Shown one piece after another: positions 19,878 to 35,662 of a stretch of 64,000 bases of DNA. A program made the position numbers and the translations under genes. The DNA is from an uncultured Dehalococcoidia bacterium (GTDB taxonomy: Bacteria; Chloroflexota; Dehalococcoidia; Lucifugimonadales; UBA1123): contig OY282441.1 in assembly GCA_958296105.1 (NCBI GenBank), positions 1,585,800-1,649,799 of the forward strand, given 5' to 3'. Positions within the stretch are counted from its first letter, which is position 1. Each line of letters starts with the position of its first letter. The notes under the pieces are model-generated. The model searched no databases, was not told the origin of the DNA, and saw only the letters and a list, made by a program, of their open reading frames with translations.

Positions 19878-20879
19878 ATGAGATACCTGAAGACGATCGG
19901 CTTCAATTCCAACCAGCCCATCGGACGCGGATTCAACTACCCATACGACACCGCGTTCAGCGCGGACGGACGCATCTTCGTGCTGAACCGGATGGGCGGT
20001 CTGAACGCGCGCGGAATCCGCATCCAGATATGCACGTTCGATGAAGGCTGGCTCGGCGAGTTCAGCACAGGCCCCGGCGACGGCGAAGACCAGCTCCGCG
20101 TTCCCGTGTGCATGGCATTCGACGCCGATGACAACCTGTACGTCACCGACGAAGCTCTGAACGAGGTCAAGGTCTTCGACAGTCAAGGGGCTTTCATCAG
20201 GAAGTGGGGAAGCGATGTAGACGAAATCGGAACGCTGCAAGGCCCCGCGGGCATCGCGCACGGCGGCGACGGCTCTGTGTACGTAGTCGAGCAGTACGCG
20301 AACCGCGTTCACAAGCTGACGCCGGAGGGCGAATCCATCCTTAGCTGGGGAAGCGGCGGCAGCGGGGAAGGAAGATTCGATCTGCCCTGGGGCGCGGCCG
20401 TCGATTCCGAGGGGAGCGTGTACGTCGCCGACTGGAGAAACGACCGCGTGCAGAAGTTCACGCCAGACGGCGAATTCATGGCGGCGTATGGCGAACCGGG
20501 CGACGCAGAGGGCCAATTCCACAGACCAAGCTCGGTTGCCGTGACCGGAGACGGCTTGATCTGCGTGGCGGACTGGGGCAACGAGCGCGTGCAGATTCTC
20601 GGCCCGGATGGAGAGTTTCGCCAGATGCTCACGGGCGAGGCGACGCTGTCGAAGTGGGCAGAGGAGTGGCTCGAAGTGAACCAAGACGAGTACGCCGCGC
20701 GCCGCGCCTCCGACCTGCACGTCAAGGACCTGCCCGCGCATCTGCGAACCCCGTTCCACACCGCTTCTCAGACGGAGCCGGTCTTCTGGGGGCCGGTATC
20801 CGTCTCGCTGGACTCCGAAGACCGCCTGTACGTCACCGAACACAGCCGCCATCGAATACAGATATACGAGCAGGAGTGA
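19878..20879 (+). CDS. NHL-repeat beta-propeller protein
   Basis: This 333-aa NHL propeller contains YVTDEALNEVKVF, YVVEQYANRVHKL, YVADWRNDRVQKF and CVADWGNERVQIL. The tail EPVFWGPVSVSLDSEDRLYV is repeated as a decayed fragment at 21974-22030. AGGA lies nine bases before ATG 19878. It is probably cotranscribed with the preceding NHL gene. No export signal is apparent. As with its paralogues, a ligand or partner cannot be named; the DUF1800 neighbourhood suggests a joint function. Confidence 0.9.
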   Translation: MRYLKTIGFNSNQPIGRGFNYPYDTAFSADGRIFVLNRMGGLNARGIRIQICTFDEGWLGEFSTGPGDGEDQLRVPVCMAFDADDNLYVTDEALNEVKVFDSQGAFIRKWGSDVDEIGTLQGPAGIAHGGDGSVYVVEQYANRVHKLTPEGESILSWGSGGSGEGRFDLPWGAAVDSEGSVYVADWRNDRVQKFTPDGEFMAAYGEPGDAEGQFHRPSSVAVTGDGLICVADWGNERVQILGPDGEFRQMLTGEATLSKWAEEWLEVNQDEYAARRASDLHVKDLPAHLRTPFHTASQTEPVFWGPVSVSLDSEDRLYVTEHSRHRIQIYEQE

Positions 20880-20935
20880 CAAGCCCACGGCGCGCTTTTC
20901 GTGTACCATATTGGCATCCTTCAGCAGGAGAGGGG

Positions 20936-21880
20936 ATGATGAGCGGGGAAATAATCGTAGAGCTCGTCGCGCTTGCGGCGGTTCTCGTGACTGTCATCAC
21001 GCTCATGCTGCGGATGACGAACAGAATCGAAAACAGAATAGACAGCAGAGTAGACAGGCTCGAAGCTAGGATCGAGTCTGTACGCGCTGAACTCATCGAG
21101 AAGATCGAGTCTGTGCGCGCCGAACTCAGCGAGAGAATCGAGTCTGTACGCACTGAACTCAGCGAGAAGATCGAGTCCACCCGCACTGAACTCAAAGCGG
21201 ATACTCAAGCGCTCGACGCGAAGGTCGAGGCAATGCGCGCTGAACTCAGCGAGAAGATCGAGTCTGTACGCACAGAACTCAAAGCGGACACTCAAGCACT
21301 CGACGCGAAGATCGAGTCTATACGCACAGAACTCAGCGAGAGGATCGAGGCAATGCGCGCTGAACTCAGCGAGAAGATCGAGTCTGTACGCACAGAACTC
21401 AAAGCGGACACTCAAGCGATCAATGCGAAGGTCGAGTCTGTACGCACAGAACTCAAAGCGGACATTCAAGCGCTCGACGCGAAAGTCGGGTCGATGCGCG
21501 CTGAACTCAGCGAGAAGATCGAGTCCACCCGCACTGAACTCGGCGCGGATACTCAAGCGCTCGATGCGAAGGTCGAGTCTGTACGCACAGAACCCAAAGC
21601 GGACATTCAAGCGCTCGACGCGAAGGTTGGGTCGATGCGCGCTGAACTCAGCGAGAAGATCGAGTCCACCCGCGCTGAACTCGGCGCGGATACTCAAGCG
21701 CTCGATGCGAAGGTCGAGTCTGTACGCGCTGAACTTGGCGATAAGATAGAGTCTGTACGCGCCGAACTCGGCGATAAGATAGACGATACTCGAGCCAATG
21801 TTCAGTGGCTAAAGGGATTCATGGAAGGACGGCAAGCTGAATCCGAGGCGGCCGAGCGTGAACGGGTAGGCGCAGTCTGA
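20936..21880 (+). CDS. Membrane-anchored coiled-coil repeat protein
   Basis: This 314-aa protein begins with one hydrophobic helix (about residues 5-25, EIIVELVALAAVLVTVITLML). About 250 residues follow of almost perfect 11- and 22-residue repeats such as IESVRAELSEK and KADTQALDAKV, which predict a long uninterrupted coiled coil. The end, DTRANVQWLKGFMEGRQ, leaves the register. Charge pattern and length suggest a rod projecting from the membrane, perhaps as an oligomer. The repeats are also close at DNA level, so the length may vary. AGGAG precedes tandem ATGs at 20936 and 20939. Function is unknown. Confidence 0.85.
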   Translation: MMSGEIIVELVALAAVLVTVITLMLRMTNRIENRIDSRVDRLEARIESVRAELIEKIESVRAELSERIESVRTELSEKIESTRTELKADTQALDAKVEAMRAELSEKIESVRTELKADTQALDAKIESIRTELSERIEAMRAELSEKIESVRTELKADTQAINAKVESVRTELKADIQALDAKVGSMRAELSEKIESTRTELGADTQALDAKVESVRTEPKADIQALDAKVGSMRAELSEKIESTRAELGADTQALDAKVESVRAELGDKIESVRAELGDKIDDTRANVQWLKGFMEGRQAESEAAERERVGAV

Positions 21881-27852: not shown

Positions 27853-27870
27853 GTTCACTTCTCACACGTA

Positions 27871-27926
27871 GACGCCCCATGAACCTCACCTCACCTAGCG
27901 ACGCGAGCGGTACAGAGCAATCCTCG
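27871..27926 (+). repeat. Left direct repeat flanking the Druantia-like island (relic of OAD 5' end)
   Basis: This stretch matches 34794-34844, the ribosome site and first codons of the oxaloacetate-decarboxylase-like gene, at 48 of 51 positions. It carries a 5-base insertion that repeats TCACC. The insertion shifts the frame so that the relic stops at TAG 27932-27934. It ends just before the stop of the DruA-like gene. It marks one edge of the inserted segment. Confidence 0.85.
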
Positions 27927-27931
27927 GTGGG

Positions 27932-29185
27932 TTAGTGATCGAGAGTGAGTTTGTCGCGGAGTTCATCCCGATCGAACTCGCAGTATTCCGGTCTTCGTTC
28001 GCTCCTAGGTACTACCCAGCGGTCTCTTGCCAATTTGGAAATCTCCTCGACTGTTCGGTGGTTGAACACCAGCTCATCATCTCTATCCATGAGAAATTCG
28101 CGGGAGTTCCTCGCTATTGGCATCGCGTAAACCTCGCGTTTGATCCCGTGTCTTAGAATTGCGTCAGAATCCAGCCCAAGCGTTCTCAGCCCTTCCCTCG
28201 CAACCCTGATGCGCCAGTTGGGTCCACTGCCGAATTGGTGTCCGTTCGCATATCGGTGTCCGTCTTCATGGAGAATCTGCCGCAACTCTGAGAAAATATC
28301 GTTGGTTATCTGGAAATGCCCGTATCCTATGGTCGTGCCGAGCCTTTGCAGGTGAACTACCACCGTTTTATCCGAGTCAGTGAGCTTCAGTCTGTTGTAC
28401 AGCGACGACCGTCCAAGCGCGGAGGTAACTGTGACCAGAGCCAGTTGCGCCGCCTTCCGCTTCCTGCTGATGATGCCGGGCTTGTTCCCGTAACGTTCCT
28501 CGAACTTGTGCGCAACCTCTTTAGACGCGATGAGTGAAGCGACCAACTTCCCGCCCAGCAGGTTGGAGTAGGGGGGCACCGCGCCAACCACGTAGGCGTC
28601 CATCACGTTGACCAACTTCTCCCTGCGGTCGGACTGATCCCAGCCTATCCAGGTATCTCGATCTCTCAGGTTGAACACCGGATCGCCCAGCGCGAACAGC
28701 CCTATCAGCTTGCCGTTCGACTGGTCCACGACCAGATAGCGCAGTCTGCGACCGTATCCTTGTGATACGGGTATCGACCACAGGAGAGTGGCAAACCTGA
28801 AGAGGTCTCCGGTTCGAGTCCCAGATTTGACTTCGATCAGTTCGGGGCGAATCTTCTCGGGATCGACCTCGTCGCCGTTTGCGATTTCCTCTATGAACAG
28901 CTCCAGCTTGTTCCCCAACGCCCGGCGGATGCGCTTGTGGGCCGCCTCTCTGTGAAGATGGTGAATATGTCGAATGGCGTCTTTAGTAAGCGCGCCGCTC
29001 GACCGTGACCCATTCAAGCCAATCGCTGAAAGATGGGCGTGAATGTCTTTACGCAGATTATCTCTATCCACACATTCGATGCCATCTTCTATCTCATCGG
29101 GTGACGCGCCGTTCCGGTGAGCGCTCGGCTTGAGATCGGATAGCTCGACCTCCGTGTTAGTGTCGGCTGTCTGCGGGGACACCAT
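27932..29185 (-). CDS. druA: DruA-like protein (DUF4338), Druantia-type defence
   Basis: This 417-aa protein carries a DUF4338 domain in about residues 125-300. Its signature runs FRFATLLWSIPVSQGYGRRLRYLVVD, LIGLFALGDPVFNLRDRDTWIGWD, RREKLVNVMDAYVVGAVPPYSNLLGGKLVASL and a later SSLYNRLKL. In type I Druantia, DUF4338 is DruA, encoded with DruB-E. Here it is alone with DruE, 18 bases downstream on the same strand. The first 120 residues are charged and helical and not recognised. Molecular action of DruA is not established; a nucleic-acid role is likely. The domain call is good, while assignment to a working defence system is inferred from the pairing. Confidence 0.8.
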   Translation of the reverse strand: MVSPQTADTNTEVELSDLKPSAHRNGASPDEIEDGIECVDRDNLRKDIHAHLSAIGLNGSRSSGALTKDAIRHIHHLHREAAHKRIRRALGNKLELFIEEIANGDEVDPEKIRPELIEVKSGTRTGDLFRFATLLWSIPVSQGYGRRLRYLVVDQSNGKLIGLFALGDPVFNLRDRDTWIGWDQSDRREKLVNVMDAYVVGAVPPYSNLLGGKLVASLIASKEVAHKFEERYGNKPGIISRKRKAAQLALVTVTSALGRSSLYNRLKLTDSDKTVVVHLQRLGTTIGYGHFQITNDIFSELRQILHEDGHRYANGHQFGSGPNWRIRVAREGLRTLGLDSDAILRHGIKREVYAMPIARNSREFLMDRDDELVFNHRTVEEISKLARDRWVVPRSERRPEYCEFDRDELRDKLTLDH

Positions 29186-29203
29186 CGAGCCGGACTCCGT
29201 TCA

Positions 29204-32200
29204 TCAAAGACTGCGAGAGTTGGACAGATCGTTCGCCACCCAGAAAGGTCTGCGAAGCAGATCGAAGCTGGTATAGACCCTTGGACGAATGCCAGTGTCC
29301 TCATGTAGTCGTCTCAGCTCATAGGCTGACGGCCTCGCGGATAGAGGATGGATTGACACTATTCCGATACGCTTGCCCTTCCCCCGCTCGAACACCGCGC
29401 TGAACTGCTCGGGCCGCTCGCTTGCATCAACGACGTTCCAACCGGAGCGCATGTATTCACTCAATCCCGCAACCATGCCCTCCATTTGCCTTCGGGGCAG
29501 GAGTGGGCGCTCATCATTCAGCTTCAGCGCGTATTCCAGAACGGCGGCGCCAAGGCTGCGGTCGAGGAGATTGTGCATCCTCTGGTTCCTGTATCCCATT
29601 AGGCAGTGGTAGCAGGCGGCGGCGCAATCGGGATTGGGGCATTTTCTCCCCATGTCCAGCGCGAGGCGCGCGACCTCTTCCAAGTTCTCCTGAATGGCGC
29701 GCGCGTAACCCGCTCCACCGGGAACGTCGTCGTATATGAATACCTCGCCCTGTATGCGCCCGAACTTGTCCCGCATTGGGCGAACGCCGACTTGAATCTC
29801 GTCAGGGTTGATCTGCAATACCCGCGCCGCCGCCTCGGACATCAGCGTTCCGAATGAATACCAAACCGCACGACCGGACGGCTCTGTGAACGGCGCGTCC
29901 AGAAATTCGGGCATGTCCAGCGCCAGCAGTATCACTTCGGAGTTGAATCGGTGTCCAAGCGCGACCTTGTTGTCGAAGTCCGTCCTGTTCGGACATCGCC
30001 AGCCAGCTCTCGGCCCTTGTCTGTATCTCCCATGCGGCGGCACGTCTGCCGGGTAGGTATGCTCTCCGAGGTTGTCAGGATCCAGAAGTCGCCCACATGC
30101 GGGGCATAACAGGAACCCAGGGTTCGCGCGATCCGGCCCCATGTTTCGCATGAAGAGATCCCCGAGGTGTACGGAGGAGTACAGACTTGGAGCGAACGGA
30201 GCGTTATCCTGTCCGCTGGTGACCGCGTTCGCGCCTACCAGCAGCTGGGGGGACGGCGCATATCCGGCGCGCTCCCACCCGCCGGACCTGTACTTCTCCC
30301 TGCCGCCGTTAGGCAGCGCCGCGTCCACGGTGAAGCCGGGAGGTCTAAGGTACGGCATGTTCAGAACGTCAGCGCCGCCGCACTCCCTACACTTCGATTC
30401 GGGCGCGCTCAGAGAGGTCAGAGTCACGGCGCGGCACTGCCTGCACTCGTTCAGACGCTCGTTTGGCGAGTAGTCAGGAAACGGCGCCGATGGATCATAG
30501 ACCGCCGCCACCCTGTATATATATGTTTCGGGGAACTTTCCTTGCAGCACTTCGGCTCCGGGAGCGTACTCCGAGAGCGCAATTTTCAGGTCGCGTTGGA
30601 TACCTGAGTAGAAATCTTGGGACTCGTAACTGTCCTCTGGTTCTTCATCCTGTGGAATCGCCAAGCTCACCACGTCTACGGGGAAGGCGTACTTGGGCAG
30701 CAAGCCGCGCCTTAGCAGAACGTCCAGCATGTCGTCGCTCCCATCCGCCCTGCGCGCTGCGCCTTCTATCTCGTCTGGCAGTGCAGACAGCCACTCTCCA
30801 ATACTGTCTTTCAGAGATTCGTCGACTACGGCAGCGGCGCGTTCGAGGAGAGCGGCGCGATTCCGCCTGATGTGCGTCTCTAGGCCTGCCGGTCCGCCAT
30901 CCGAGATGAATTTTCCCACCGTTCCCCAAGCCCCGAACAGCCCCACAGACGTTCCTCTATGCCTAGACAGCCATCGGGAGAAGAAATCCCCAAGCACAAG
31001 CGAGCGAGCGTGTCGCCGCGCAATGACATCGTTCCCCAAATACAGAACGGGAACACGCGGAAGGTCAGATACGATCTGCTTGGGGCGGTGAAAATAGTAC
31101 TGGTCATGGCTGCGGTTCAGTGCATATGTCACCACGGTTGCAACCGCGCTGCCCCTGCGACCGGCCCTGCCCGCGCGCTGCTGGTAGTTCGCCACCGTGG
31201 GCGCGACGTTGCGAAGACCCACGCTCAGCAGGCTGCCGATATCTATGCCCATCTCCATCGTCGTTGTCACGGAGAGAATGGCTATCCGTTTGTCCGCAGG
31301 CTGCTCGGACGAATGAAACAGGTCTTGGAACCACCTCTCTATGTTCCGCGCCTCCTGCCGTTCTGTCATGCCCGTGTGAGCCGCCGACTGAAGAGGGTAG
31401 GGGTCTGGATACCCGCTCCCCGGCCTAGCGAACAGCGCCTCCCGACGGAAGAAGTTTCTAATGGACACCGCTTCCACTCGCTCGGCGTCCTGTCCGCACC
31501 TGTAACAGACCCCAAGCAGCGCTTCTCCCATGACGAACCCGCACGCGCCACACCTGAACACCTTGTCTCCGATGGGATGAAGCTCGAACGAATCTACACG
31601 GATTCCGTGAGGCACTTGCTTGTTGACACGTTTGTCTACCGGAACCAGAATCTCGAAATACTTCAGCGCGTCCCATAGCGGCCGGCGCAGGTACTCCAAC
31701 CACTTCCCAACGTCTTCTAGGCGGCCTTCATTAGCCAGAGAGCGCGCCACAGCATGGACGTACCTACCCAGCTTCCGAGTCGGCTGTAAGTTGTAGGGGA
31801 CGTTGTTGCCCTCCATCCGTCTAGACTGGATTATCCTCCGCTTCTCGTATCGCTGCATCCGATCATCGAATGGCCACTCCCAGGGCTTCAGCGGTTCCGG
31901 AGGCAGCAGTATATTTTCGGTGGCGAGAATTCGGGCGGCGGTGCGCAAGAGAGCTTGTGTCTCTTCCTCAGTCAAAGGCTCGAACTCTCCTGTCTTTTCG
32001 GGCAGTCGCACAGACCACACCGCGAGTCCAAGCGGTTCCAATCCGAATTCGTCCTGAGCAATCTCCCGCCTGGCTGATATGTCGAATGACACCTGCGCTT
32101 CGTGATAGATACTACTGTGATCGTCGTTCATCTTATCGAAGGCGTCCGGCACATGTCCGTAGGTCGGGTTTATCTCCCTGTCCACCTCTAGGTCTATGAC

Positions 32201-34630
32201 GCGGCGGCGCAGCTCCGCGTATCTCAGCGCGGATGGACTCGGCTCGAATCCGTCCCCCGCGCAGGAGTCGCACCGCGTCTCCGTGACAGTCTGAGGCTGG
32301 CCTATCACGTATGCGCCTTCCTCCCTGACGACGCCGGAGCCGCCGCACTTCGCGCAAGTGTGCAGGACTCGATACAGCAGCTGGCGAAACAGGTCGTTCT
32401 GGTGATCAATTCTCAGGTCGCCGGCTAGCTGATTCGCATTCTGCCGAGAGTCCGAAAATGCCAGCGCCTTGCGCCCGCTCGAACCGTCCGGCTGTACGCG
32501 CAAGGTATCCGCCATCACCACCGATATGGAGCGGGGCCCCCGAGTCCTCAGAGGTTCGATTATCTCGCGCTCTCCGTTTGGAGAGCGGTAGTTCCGGCAT
32601 CGCGGACACTGACTGGGAAATGGGCTAACCTCGATACCGTTCTGACTTGCTGGATTGACTCCGAACGACGGACGCGCGTACTCGTCTCGTGGAGCGCAGG
32701 GAAGAGTCGTCCTGATAGAACGATGCTGGCCATGATGATCGTCGTTCGGCCTCTCGACCCCGAATATCCGATAGGCACTGAAATCGCTGAAGTCTCTGTT
32801 CTCCCCGCTGAAGTCATCGCTCCAAGGCCACAGGCTTCCCGATCCACTGTCCGGTATCCCACTTGCGAACAGCAGCCCGCACTTGCGGCATGAGAACAGT
32901 TCCAGCACTCGCGCCCCGCAGCTCTCTGTACACCACAGACGAGGATCGGTATACACCCTGCCCACAGGCCGATCCCCGCGATACGCTTGCGGGATCTCCG
33001 GGCAGCTCGGATTCAGACACGCCCACAGCCCCGGCACCCCTCGAAAGAACGCATGTATTCGCATGGAGAGTATCGGAGGCGTGTCCGGCAGCGGCACCTC
33101 TCGCGCGTAGCTGCCAGCCGCCAGAAGTCCGGCGGTCGCGCGCTCCCTGTCCGCTTGCTCCGCTTCCATTGGCCAGCACTCCCGCGCAAGCTCCGACAGC
33201 AGCGTCGCGTTCCTGGCAGTCCTGGCTCTGATCCACTGCAAATCTAGGTTATCCGACAGCATCTGATACAGAGCCACTTGCGGGTCTTGGTTCTCGTCCG
33301 GCTCGGCAAGCTCCAGCGATTGCGCCAATATCCGAATTCCGGGCCACGGGTCGCTCTGAGTAAACGCGTCGTGGAACTTGCCGAACGCCGCGAACGAGCG
33401 AGCGTCCGCTTTTCGCGCACTTGGCTTCTCGTCCGCGATTCCTACGTGTACAGGAGTGAAGCTGTCCGGCGGCTCGCCGAACAGGTCCGATGTGAACTTC
33501 ACCAAGTCCGACTCTTCGGAGCCGCTACCGAGCGGAATAGACGCGCTGGTGGCGATGGCGCGCAGTTTACCCGAACCCGGTTCTATACCAAGACGCTCCT
33601 TGAGACGACGTACAAGGTGAGCGACTTCCGTACCTTTGGCGCCGGTGTAGGTGTGGGCTTCGTCCAAGACGAGCGTGACGACTCGATCATCCGACCCTTC
33701 GAGCCACCTTCGCGTCGCTTCGAATATCGGACTCTCGATCTGGCGAACGAGCATGTACTCCAGCATGGAGTAGTTCGTCACCAGAATATCCGGCGGCGCG
33801 GCCTGCATATCCCACCGACACAGCATCTCAGGGCCGCGGAGAGCGGGCCAGCTGCCCGTGCTTCTCAGCTTATCGCTAAGACTCTCCCACTCCTCCGCCA
33901 ACTGCTCCATGTAAGTGTTTAACTGCTCGCGCTTGTACTCGCTTTCAGGCCCCCTCGTCGGAGGCGTCTGACTGGTGTACATCCCGAAGTGAATGAGATT
34001 CCCGTTCATATGCCGCCGCTGCCAATCCGGCGATCTGTTCAGCGCCAGTATCCGCCGCAGCCTGGACATCTGGTCGTTCACCAGCGCGTTCATCGGGTAC
34101 AGGATGATCGCGCGAATCGCCGCTTCCCGGGTTTCGTCTCGCCGTGAGTGACGCCATACGCTCGCGCCCACATCGTAGAACCCGTCGCTCAGAGGAGCCG
34201 ATGGCGGCGACCAAGTAAGGGCTTCCTTCAGTATCCGCGCCAGTATGGGCAGGACAAACGCCTCTGTCTTTCCGGAGCCTGTGCCTGTAGCAATCAGCAG
34301 GTTTCCGGCATCGCCAAAGCCTGAGAGAAGGGCTTTCTCCTGATGCGTGTACAGCGGAAATCGCTCTAGTGGAACGCCGTGTTCCACCAGGTCAGACAGA
34401 CCCGCCGGAATGATATCGGGATGCTGACGCTCCACCTCTCGCAGGAATTTCCCCGCCGCAAATGCGGGAGTCGCTTCGATGAACGGATCCTGCGCTACCA
34501 CACCGCGACGTCGCAGAAGTTCGGACATCTCCGCGAACACGAGCGGGTGCGAAATCCGGTATCTCGACTCAATATAGCTCGCAAGCGACTCTTTGAGATG
34601 CGCGGCGGCTTCGCTTGGTGTAAACTGCAT
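29204..34630 (-). CDS. druE: DruE-like giant helicase with DUF1998
   Basis: This 1808-aa protein has a superfamily 2 helicase core followed by zinc clusters and DUF1998, the architecture of DruE. Seen are a Q-type motif YTHQEKAL (about 94), Walker A ATGTGSGKT (114-122), LVLDEAHTYTGAKG (about 320-333), TSAS (about 357) and motif VI QQRAGRAGRRGSA (about 1150). Cys pairs fall near 767 (CAKCGGSG...CDSCAGDG), 1035, 1400 and 1510. DUF1998 near 1630-1700 includes DVPGGAGYA and CAAACYHCLMGYRNQRMHNLLDR. No frameshift is visible. ATG 34630 is chosen because homology begins there, though its ribosome site is poor. DruA-like follows 18 bases later. DISARM-type proteins split these domains, so DruE fits better. 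Confidence 0.88.
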   Translation of the reverse strand: MQFTPSEAAAHLKESLASYIESRYRISHPLVFAEMSELLRRRGVVAQDPFIEATPAFAAGKFLREVERQHPDIIPAGLSDLVEHGVPLERFPLYTHQEKALLSGFGDAGNLLIATGTGSGKTEAFVLPILARILKEALTWSPPSAPLSDGFYDVGASVWRHSRRDETREAAIRAIILYPMNALVNDQMSRLRRILALNRSPDWQRRHMNGNLIHFGMYTSQTPPTRGPESEYKREQLNTYMEQLAEEWESLSDKLRSTGSWPALRGPEMLCRWDMQAAPPDILVTNYSMLEYMLVRQIESPIFEATRRWLEGSDDRVVTLVLDEAHTYTGAKGTEVAHLVRRLKERLGIEPGSGKLRAIATSASIPLGSGSEESDLVKFTSDLFGEPPDSFTPVHVGIADEKPSARKADARSFAAFGKFHDAFTQSDPWPGIRILAQSLELAEPDENQDPQVALYQMLSDNLDLQWIRARTARNATLLSELARECWPMEAEQADRERATAGLLAAGSYAREVPLPDTPPILSMRIHAFFRGVPGLWACLNPSCPEIPQAYRGDRPVGRVYTDPRLWCTESCGARVLELFSCRKCGLLFASGIPDSGSGSLWPWSDDFSGENRDFSDFSAYRIFGVERPNDDHHGQHRSIRTTLPCAPRDEYARPSFGVNPASQNGIEVSPFPSQCPRCRNYRSPNGEREIIEPLRTRGPRSISVVMADTLRVQPDGSSGRKALAFSDSRQNANQLAGDLRIDHQNDLFRQLLYRVLHTCAKCGGSGVVREEGAYVIGQPQTVTETRCDSCAGDGFEPSPSALRYAELRRRVIDLEVDREINPTYGHVPDAFDKMNDDHSSIYHEAQVSFDISARREIAQDEFGLEPLGLAVWSVRLPEKTGEFEPLTEEETQALLRTAARILATENILLPPEPLKPWEWPFDDRMQRYEKRRIIQSRRMEGNNVPYNLQPTRKLGRYVHAVARSLANEGRLEDVGKWLEYLRRPLWDALKYFEILVPVDKRVNKQVPHGIRVDSFELHPIGDKVFRCGACGFVMGEALLGVCYRCGQDAERVEAVSIRNFFRREALFARPGSGYPDPYPLQSAAHTGMTERQEARNIERWFQDLFHSSEQPADKRIAILSVTTTMEMGIDIGSLLSVGLRNVAPTVANYQQRAGRAGRRGSAVATVVTYALNRSHDQYYFHRPKQIVSDLPRVPVLYLGNDVIARRHARSLVLGDFFSRWLSRHRGTSVGLFGAWGTVGKFISDGGPAGLETHIRRNRAALLERAAAVVDESLKDSIGEWLSALPDEIEGAARRADGSDDMLDVLLRRGLLPKYAFPVDVVSLAIPQDEEPEDSYESQDFYSGIQRDLKIALSEYAPGAEVLQGKFPETYIYRVAAVYDPSAPFPDYSPNERLNECRQCRAVTLTSLSAPESKCRECGGADVLNMPYLRPPGFTVDAALPNGGREKYRSGGWERAGYAPSPQLLVGANAVTSGQDNAPFAPSLYSSVHLGDLFMRNMGPDRANPGFLLCPACGRLLDPDNLGEHTYPADVPPHGRYRQGPRAGWRCPNRTDFDNKVALGHRFNSEVILLALDMPEFLDAPFTEPSGRAVWYSFGTLMSEAAARVLQINPDEIQVGVRPMRDKFGRIQGEVFIYDDVPGGAGYARAIQENLEEVARLALDMGRKCPNPDCAAACYHCLMGYRNQRMHNLLDRSLGAAVLEYALKLNDERPLLPRRQMEGMVAGLSEYMRSGWNVVDASERPEQFSAVFERGKGKRIGIVSIHPLSARPSAYELRRLHEDTGIRPRVYTSFDLLRRPFWVANDLSNSRSL

Positions 34631-34683
34631 CGCTCCATATCTCTCCGAGTTTCGAGTAGAATGCGCCGCATGAAATTCGCTCG

Positions 34684-34758
34684 ATCCTGCGAGCAGCCAA
34701 CTCGCAGGATGCGAGAAACACATAAACACCGTAGATTCTATCACCCCCATTCGTGATA
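34684..34758. promoter_or_regulatory. Two inverted repeats in the divergent region of the Druantia-like operon
   Basis: ATCCTGCGAG (34684-34693) and CTCGCAGGAT (34701-34710) form perfect 10-bp arms. TATCAC (34739-34744) and GTGATA (34753-34758) form perfect 6-bp arms. They sit 55-130 bases upstream of the DruE start, between it and the oxaloacetate-decarboxylase-like gene, and may be operators or an attenuating leader. Confidence 0.45.
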
Positions 34759-34793
34759 ACCTAGTTTGGTCTTGGAACCACAGCATGTTGGGA

Positions 34794-34844
34794 GACGCCC
34801 CATGAATCTCACCAAGCGACGCGAGCAGTACAGAGCAATCCTCG
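34794..34844 (+). repeat. Right direct repeat flanking the Druantia-like island
   Basis: This is the intact copy of the repeat at 27871-27926. It covers GACGCCCC upstream of ATG 34802 and the first fourteen codons of the oxaloacetate-decarboxylase-like gene. With the left copy it brackets about 6.9 kb holding the DruE and DruA-like genes. Confidence 0.85.
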
Positions 34845-35662
34845 AAGGTGGGGAGTGCGTTCATCCGGCGTCGGTGTACGATCCGATCTCGGCTCGGATC
34901 GCCGAAGACCTGGGCTTCGAGGTGATGATGTTCGCGGGGTCCATCGCGTCGGCGACCGTGCTGGGCGCGCCGGACTACATCGTGCTGACGCTGACGGAGC
35001 TCGCGCAGCAGATTCATCGCATCTGCCGCGCCGGAACGCTGCCGCTCATGGTGGACGCCGATCACGGCTACGGCAACGCGCTGAACGCGCGCCGCACGGT
35101 GGAAGAGCTGGAGACGGCAGGGGTCGCCGCGCTGACGATCGAAGACACGCTGCTTCCCCGCCCGTTCGGTCAGGCGGCGCAGAGCCTGATTCCGCTCGAA
35201 GAGGGCGTGGGCAAGATGAAGGCTGCGCTGGCAGGTCGGCAGGATCCGGCGCTGGTCGTGGCGGGCAGGTCCAGCGCCATCGCCATCGAGGGGCTGGACG
35301 AAGGCATCAGGCGCGCGAAGGCATACGAAGCAGTTGGCGTGGATGCGGTCTTTATGACAGGCATCGCCACGACAGAACAGCTGGAAGCGCTGAACGCGGA
35401 GCTGGATATCCCCATCCTGCTGGGCGGTGTGGCGGGCGACCTGACGGACCGCGACTATCTGGCCTCTCAAGGCGTTCGCGTCGCCCTACAGGGCCACTTG
35501 CCGTTCATGGCGGCGGTCAAGGCAGCCTACGACACGCTGAAGTCTCTGCGAGAAGGCGCGTCGCCCTCCGATCTGGGCGAGCGCACAGCGTCCGCCGATC
35601 TGATGGCGCAGGTCACGCGCCTAGACGAATACGACGCTTCGATACGCGAATTTCTGGACTAG
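34802..35662 (+). CDS. Oxaloacetate decarboxylase-like enzyme (isocitrate lyase/PEP mutase superfamily)
   Basis: This 286-aa TIM-barrel enzyme aligns closely by eye with the Mg-dependent oxaloacetate decarboxylase of Pseudomonas (PA4872 type). Shared features are CVHPASVYDPISARIAEDLGFE, the metal site VDADHGYGNALNARRTVEELE, AALTIEDTLLPRPFG, the EEGVGKM stretch and QGHLPFMAAVKAAYDTL. It probably cleaves a 2-oxo acid to release CO2 or an aldehyde. The gene starts within the right repeat of the Druantia-like island, so its promoter may have been replaced by island DNA. A 15-base gap separates it from a downstream enolase-superfamily gene, so they probably form an operon. Confidence 0.88.
   Translation: MNLTKRREQYRAILEGGECVHPASVYDPISARIAEDLGFEVMMFAGSIASATVLGAPDYIVLTLTELAQQIHRICRAGTLPLMVDADHGYGNALNARRTVEELETAGVAALTIEDTLLPRPFGQAAQSLIPLEEGVGKMKAALAGRQDPALVVAGRSSAIAIEGLDEGIRRAKAYEAVGVDAVFMTGIATTEQLEALNAELDIPILLGGVAGDLTDRDYLASQGVRVALQGHLPFMAAVKAAYDTLKSLREGASPSDLGERTASADLMAQVTRLDEYDASIREFLD

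What the first reader, a model, noticed from the sequence alone, without database searches (positions are those of the whole stretch)
27932..34630. Compact two-gene Druantia-like system: DruE helicase plus DruA-like DUF4338 only
A 1808-aa helicase with zinc clusters and DUF1998 is followed 18 bases later on the same strand by a DUF4338 protein. In published Druantia types, DUF4338 (DruA) comes with DruB, DruC, DruD and DruE, and DruE also pairs with DruH (type III) or DruM/F/G (type II). Here no other partner is present on either side, so this would be a reduced architecture, perhaps a distinct subtype. Both genes look intact.
Basis: partly seen in the sequence, partly recalled or inferred. 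Interest (0 to 1): 0.9.

Follow-up and report, generated by a model that had tools for sequence, protein, structure and literature searches.

The report
Two-gene Druantia variant: helicase plus acetyltransferase-fold protein
A Chloroflexota bacterium carries a compact candidate virus-defence unit of just two genes, a large DNA helicase and a protein with an acetyltransferase fold; it belongs to its own branch of the known Druantia family rather than being a trimmed version of the five-gene type, and so offers a simple way to find out what the acetyltransferase-like protein does.

Summary
In detail: druE (29204-34630, 1808 aa) and druA (27932-29185, 417 aa) lie 18 bp apart on the minus strand, intact, under purifying selection, with only metabolic genes beside them. 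An empty site in a congener shows that they arrived as an insertion.

The pair recurs (three further close loci, plus a reversed A-E pair), but it is not a reduced type I. Its DruE forms a distinct clade that groups with type II/IV-like DruEs and is rejected from the DruD-bearing (type I-like) group. DruA is co-inherited with it. About half of the clade also carries DruK, a PD-(D/E)XK nuclease gene beside or between the two; the window's genome lacks it.

Mechanism (inferred): DruE is a YprA-type helicase whose C-terminal Vsr-like domain lacks catalytic acids. DruA is predicted to be a GNAT-fold acyltransferase. With no nuclease in the unit, DruE probably engages phage replication intermediates and DruA gives the chemical output, or host nucleases finish.

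Unexpectedly, Chloroflexota DruA most often heads a different operon, DruA-NurA-HerA, so DruA looks like a module shared between motor-nuclease systems. Verdict: new variant of a known kind.

The parts
29204..34630 (-). druE: 1808-aa YprA-type SF2 helicase (RecA1, zinc-binding insertions, RecA2, DUF1998/MZB, C-terminal Vsr-like domain without catalytic acids)
   Evidence: structure model of residues 1520-1808 and fold match; tree
27932..29185 (-). druA: 417-aa DUF4338/DruA protein, predicted GNAT (acyl-CoA acyltransferase) fold
   Evidence: model pLDDT 83.8 and fold match; DUF4338 called GNAT in PMC10853773
27870..27931 (+). Left copy of an imperfect ~60-bp direct repeat, ending at the druA stop codon
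   Evidence: Alignment score 79 against a best of 35 in 200 random pairs; only two copies in the genome
34793..34852 (+). Right copy of the direct repeat = first bases of the PEP-mutase gene (ATG at 34802)
34631..34744 (.). Upstream region of druE, up to where similarity to the empty site resumes (about 34745); presumed promoter of the druE-druA operon
   Evidence: Comparison with G001; promoter role inferred

Best explanation
The pair is a minimal Druantia-like anti-phage unit of a separate DruE lineage (DruE + DruA, with an optional DruK nuclease that this genome lacks). DruE, a YprA/MrfA-type 3'-loading helicase, engages ssDNA-containing phage replication or recombination intermediates. Its C-terminal nuclease-like domain has no catalytic acids, so it does not cut. 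DruA, an acyl-CoA-dependent GNAT-fold enzyme, gives the chemical output, either by modifying DNA or by acylating a protein at the DNA that DruE has engaged. Together they block phage replication, and where DruK is present DNA cleavage is added. Shown here: gene content, fold class, lineage, co-inheritance, absence of catalytic acids, purifying selection, defence-island context of relatives. Inferred: defence function, DNA loading, that DruA is catalytically active, and its substrate.
For: Family matches. Distinct DruE clade and matching DruA clade. Pair retained at 65-76% identity with dN/dS about 0.1-0.16, dS saturated. Relatives lie in defence islands: PLD-helicase + Eco57I methylase in L034/L041 and the helicase again in L040; PglZ + SNF2 genes upstream in L037/L049. 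DruA model is a GNAT fold, best solved match phage Mu Mom Z 10.3 with many other GNATs at Z 9-9.7; 45 invariant residues in 30 DruAs, many polar. DruE C-terminus = MrfA DUF1998 (Z 12.6) + Vsr/PD-(D/E)XK-like fold (Z 8.3 to 3hrl) with no conserved acidic pair. No dedicated DruK or DruD in the genome. DruA also travels with another motor + nuclease pair, HerA + NurA. Published: Druantia III DruE prefers 3'-tailed DNA and defends late (PMC13192584); types I and II DruE carry inactivated Vsr domains (PMC12458937).
Against: No activity data. Catalysis by DruA is inferred from fold and conservation only; a DruA profile does not match a Mom profile by sequence, so the Mom resemblance is fold-level. 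The published DruE mechanism is from type III, whose DruE has an active PLD nuclease. Half of the clade keeps a nuclease gene, which suggests that cleavage matters in those systems. The two genes here lie among metabolic genes, not in a defence island.
Confidence: 0.45

Rival explanations
1. DruE-DruA recruits a host nuclease (AddAB/RecBCD-like or other) to destroy phage DNA; DruA is a non-catalytic or regulatory adaptor, and DruK is a dedicated version of the nuclease in other members.
For: DruK beside DruE/DruA in L036, L037, L041, L187. Weak DruK-profile matches inside large 915-1155-aa proteins of G000/G016 could be AddB/RecB-like. Druantia III is sensitive to loss of RecD (PMC13192584 abstract). 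DruA elsewhere sits with NurA + HerA.
Against: DruA polar residues are strongly conserved, unlike a dead adaptor; no evidence ties the pair to a particular nuclease.
Confidence: 0.25
2. The pair is a decayed remnant that has lost an essential partner (DruK or others) and is no longer functional.
For: Sister subclade carries DruK; flanking direct repeats and no mobility genes suggest an old, pared-down insertion.
Against: Both genes are intact with helicase and zinc motifs; the same two-gene content is kept in four lineages 65-76% identical with dN/dS about 0.1-0.16; a more distant member, L053, also has only A + E.
Confidence: 0.12
3. The pair works in DNA repair or stress rather than defence (MrfA/YprA-like repair helicase with a GNAT partner).
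For: YprA/MrfA relatives outside the defence branch are repair helicases (PMC12458937); DUF1998 of the model matches MrfA best.
Against: DruE profiles score up to 917 bits, other helicase profiles 80 or less; patchy presence, absent from congeners, one of which shows an empty site; relatives in defence islands.
Confidence: 0.12
4. DruA places a protective acyl mark on host DNA and DruE restricts unmarked DNA, a restriction-modification-like logic.
For: Best solved match of the DruA model is Mom, a DNA adenine modification enzyme.
Against: Mom is tied with other GNATs within 1 Z; no sequence link; DruE has no recognisable active nuclease.
Confidence: 0.06

Closest known systems
Druantia type I (DruA-DruB-DruC-DruD-DruE)
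   Same: Has DruA and a DruE helicase with a Vsr-like C-terminal region predicted inactive
   Different: No DruB, DruC or DruD; DruE lies outside the DruD-bearing clade; C-terminal motif HPLxARP...TSFDLLRRPFWV is not that of type I
Druantia type II (DruM-DruF-DruG-DruE) and type IV (DruE-DruF-DruL)
   Same: DruE tree neighbour (SH-aLRT 99) with a similar C-terminal HPL...F.L.RRP motif
   Different: Partner genes absent; DruA present instead
Druantia type III (DruH-DruE)
   Same: Two-component unit with one large YprA-type helicase
   Different: DruA instead of DruH; no C-terminal PLD nuclease
DruE-DruK-DruA loci (Meiothermus taiwanensis plasmid pMtWR-220, Ktedonobacteraceae, Chloroflexi HGW-10)
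   Same: Same DruE and DruA clades
   Different: Carry an additional PD-(D/E)XK nuclease gene (DruK-like)
DruA-NurA-HerA operon of Chloroflexota (seen here)
   Same: DruA-family GNAT-fold protein with a DNA motor
   Different: HerA ATPase and NurA nuclease instead of DruE

Membership tests
Druantia (DruE helicase family) | DruE-type YprA helicase with DUF1998/MZB | tested here: met
   PADLOC DruE1 917 bits, MZB, tree with other DruEs rooted on ARMADA
Druantia type I | DruA (DUF4338) present | tested here: met
   Pfam 288 bits, PADLOC DruA1 464 bits
Druantia type I | DruB, DruC, DruD present in the locus | tested here: not met
   No credible match in the 64-kb window with profiles of B, C, D (one weak C-profile match, E 0.002, to a coiled-coil repeat ORF at 20654-21880, is taken as chance); DruD absent from whole genome, positive control G028 rings
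Druantia type I | DruE falls with type I DruEs | tested here: not met
   Grouping the window clade with all DruD-bearing systems rejected, AU p = 0.0007; long branches in the tree are a caveat
Druantia type II / IV | DruM, DruF, DruG or DruL beside DruE | tested here: not met
   Ten flanking proteins match no Druantia PADLOC profile
Druantia type III | DruH partner and C-terminal PLD nuclease in DruE | tested here: not met
   No DruH in flanks; the last ~100 residues match Vsr/PD-(D/E)XK-like folds and the protein ends there, with no room for PLD domains
[quoted passage not shown]
   Flanks are metabolic genes; DruE separates from the ARMADA II outgroup
GNAT superfamily (DruA) | GNAT fold | tested here: met
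   AlphaFold2 model pLDDT 83.8; second-look matches are GNATs, Z up to 10.3; Foldseek itself gave no E below 0.001, though its top rows are GNATs
GNAT superfamily (DruA) | Acyl-CoA binding and catalysis | not testable with these tools
   Only conservation of candidate loop residues could be seen
Mom DNA modification family | Sequence-profile relationship to Mom | tested here: inconclusive
   hhalign probability 0.1-0.3% with one and six Mom sequences; the Mom profile is thin
Anti-phage defence | Protection against phage | not testable with these tools
   Needs a plaque assay in a laboratory strain

The most novel reading that the evidence does not exclude
A nuclease-free defence unit in which a helicase delivers a GNAT acyltransferase that chemically modifies invading DNA or its replication proteins, and which is one member of a wider, undescribed class where a DruA-type GNAT works with interchangeable motor-nuclease modules (DruE, DruE+DruK, HerA+NurA).
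Probability: 0.25. Interest if true: 0.85.

Novelty: new variant of a known kind. Interest (0 to 1): 0.52.

Why it matters
The role of DruA in Druantia is unknown, and the type I system needs five genes. A natural two-gene unit with one helicase and one GNAT-fold protein makes the role of DruA directly testable. The finding that DruA also heads NurA-HerA operons, and that related loci add a DruK nuclease, suggests a general GNAT + motor + nuclease logic shared by several DNA-targeting systems. The distinct DruE clade with DruA or DruK-DruA is a candidate new Druantia type.

Tried and rejected
Reduced type I: rejected by the DruE tree and AU test. The narrower AU test against canonical type I alone was not finished. 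DruK hidden elsewhere in the genome: only weak matches inside large proteins. Mom homology of DruA: sequence profiles do not support it. PHROGs gave only a DruA match of unknown function. Viral contigs: no relative of this DruE; phage records only distant ones. L034 was first counted as a member of the same pair, but its DruA is a different lineage (32% identity; tree), so it is counted apart. L043 has a broken DruE and L049 is cut by a contig end; neither is used as evidence for pair content. Integration mechanism: the left repeat is not preceded by the native upstream sequence of the PEP-mutase gene, so simple site-specific integration at the repeat is not shown.

Full report
Observation. 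The window (G000, a single 3.18-Mb contig; a genome of the same order, G016, matches a record titled Dehalococcoidia, so Chloroflexota) carries druE at 34630-29204 and druA at 29185-27932 on the minus strand, 18 bp apart. Pfam finds DruA (PF14236, 288 bits), MZB/DUF1998, DEAD and Helicase_C. PADLOC finds DruE1 (917 bits; DruE2 849, DruE4 831, DruE3 518) and DruA1 (464 bits). Walker A, DEAH, TSAS, motif VI and ten CxxC motifs are intact. The pair is flanked by a Bac_luciferase gene and a PEP-mutase gene, then other metabolic genes. Ten flanking proteins match no Druantia profile.

How it got there. In congener G001 the luciferase and PEP-mutase genes are adjacent, 306 bp apart, and the window's flanks align to that interval up to about 27855 on the left and from about 34745 on the right. 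DruA is absent from the three congeners searched. An imperfect direct repeat of about 60 bp flanks the pair (27870-27931 and 34793-34852; score 79 against at most 35 in 200 random pairs). It occurs only twice in the genome, and its right copy is the start of the PEP-mutase gene. The pair is therefore an inserted module; no mobility gene was seen in it and the mechanism is open.

Relatives and lineage. A scan of genome contigs with the DruE alignment gave 80 loci. In a DruE tree (the latter rooted on an ARMADA II helicase) the window falls in a clade with MAGs or genomes of Dehalococcoidia, Caldilineaceae, other Chloroflexota, Ktedonobacteraceae, Meiothermus and one Chitinophagales. This clade is apart from canonical type I (A-B-C-D-E), from a large group with DruA, a ~960-aa protein and DruD, from a BrxHII-DruD-UvrD-DruE-DruK group, and from type III. 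It groups with the type II representative L118 and cyanobacterial L115 (SH-aLRT 99). Forcing it to group with all DruD-bearing systems is rejected (AU p = 0.0007). Long branches (L115, L118, outgroup) are a caveat. The C-terminal motif HPLxARP...TSFDLLRRPFWV is shared with L118/L115 and not with type I.

Gene content of the clade. DruE followed at once by DruA: window, L035, L038 (= G016), L040. DruA then DruE: L053; L034 has a DruA of another lineage. With a third gene, a PD-(D/E)XK nuclease matching PADLOC DruK and Pfam PDDEXK_1: DruE-DruK-DruA in L036/L114 and L037, DruA-DruE-DruK in L041/L188 and L187. The DruAs of this clade form a matching clade of eight (SH-aLRT 93), so the two genes are co-inherited. 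In the bare-pair subclade proteins are 65-76% identical with dN 0.16-0.26 and saturated dS. DruD is absent from G000 and G016, and DruK gives only weak matches inside large proteins, while positive controls ring (also 75). In 400 Chloroflexota genomes DruA occurs in 30, and adjacent DruA-DruE only in G000, G380 and G510. L037 is adjacent to PglZ and SNF2 genes; L034 and L041 have a PLD-helicase beside a methylase (Eco57I-type in L034), and L040 carries a homologue of that helicase. This is the usual setting of defence genes.

What the proteins are. DruA: an AlphaFold2 model from 30 sequences (pLDDT 83.8) has a GNAT fold. The best solved match is phage Mu Mom (Z 10.3, 186 residues), with many GNATs at Z 9-9.7, so Mom is tied with them. 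Plain Foldseek gave no E below 0.001. Profile comparison with Mom fails. DUF4338 is described as a GNAT domain fused to DndF in PMC10853773. Forty-five residues are invariant in the 30 DruAs, among them PPY....GGK in the expected CoA loop and GxSSxYN. DruE: the model of residues 1520-1808 (pLDDT 83.4) matches the DUF1998 region of MrfA (Z 12.6) and then a Vsr/PD-(D/E)XK-like endonuclease fold (3hrl, Z 8.3). No conserved acidic pair is seen there, in line with the published view that types I and II DruE carry inactivated Vsr domains (PMC12458937).

Mechanism. Best supported: DruE loads on ssDNA-containing phage intermediates, as shown for type III (PMC13192584), and DruA supplies an acyl-CoA-dependent output; DruK, where present, adds cleavage. 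Steps after fold and lineage are inference. The main rival is recruitment of a host nuclease.

Unexpected. Chloroflexota DruA most often heads another operon, DruA-NurA-HerA: 11 of 20 loci clear, one more in fragments, with NurA and HerA domains by Pfam. PADLOC has no model matching this NurA, and the paper searches found no description. DruA is thus a module shared by at least two kinds of motor-nuclease system.

Known or new. Druantia types I to IV are published (type IV = DruE+DruF+DruL, PMC8565338). The PADLOC paper describes relaxed 'other' classes needing only two co-localised genes, so a detector could flag this pair without naming it. No paper found describes DruE+DruA, with or without DruK, as a unit; the library is partial. 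I rate it a new variant of a known kind.

Noticed in passing
L189-L193, L196-L201 (Chloroflexota genomes), L009: Conserved three-gene operon DruA - NurA-like nuclease - HerA-like ATPase, genes overlapping or nearly so; apparently undescribed. DruA in Chloroflexota is more often here than with DruE.
   Followed up: partly
L204, L205: DruA next to a more distant HerA-like protein, followed by a 410-aa protein with a sub-threshold NurA match in L205; gene order DruA-HerA-NurA.
   Followed up: no
window 27870-27931 and 34793-34852: Imperfect 60-bp direct repeat flanking the inserted pair, a copy of the start of the PEP-mutase gene, only two copies in the genome.
   Followed up: partly
L058, L068, L074, L077, L082, L109 and others: A separate pair of a large DruA (about 670 aa) and a GHKL ATPase (distant MzaB match) lies next to many DruD-type Druantia loci, on the opposite strand.
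   Followed up: no
L044, L045, L047, L050, L084: DruE group with BrxHII-like helicase, DruD-like protein, UvrD/GajB-like helicase and DruK; looks like another unnamed Druantia-like architecture.
   Followed up: no
L102 5963-8923 and 34 other loci: About 960-aa protein upstream of DruD and DruE with no PADLOC or Pfam match, in place of DruB/DruC.
   Followed up: no
window 20654-21880: ORF with a strongly repetitive coiled-coil-like sequence (ESVRTELKADTQALDAKVE repeats); not examined.
   Followed up: no
PDB 9wae and six related entries: A solved 1970-aa 'Helicase' is the nearest solved relative of this DruE (353 bits), closer than the 2108-aa 'DEAD/DEAH box helicase' of 9tu7; its system was not identified here.
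   Followed up: no
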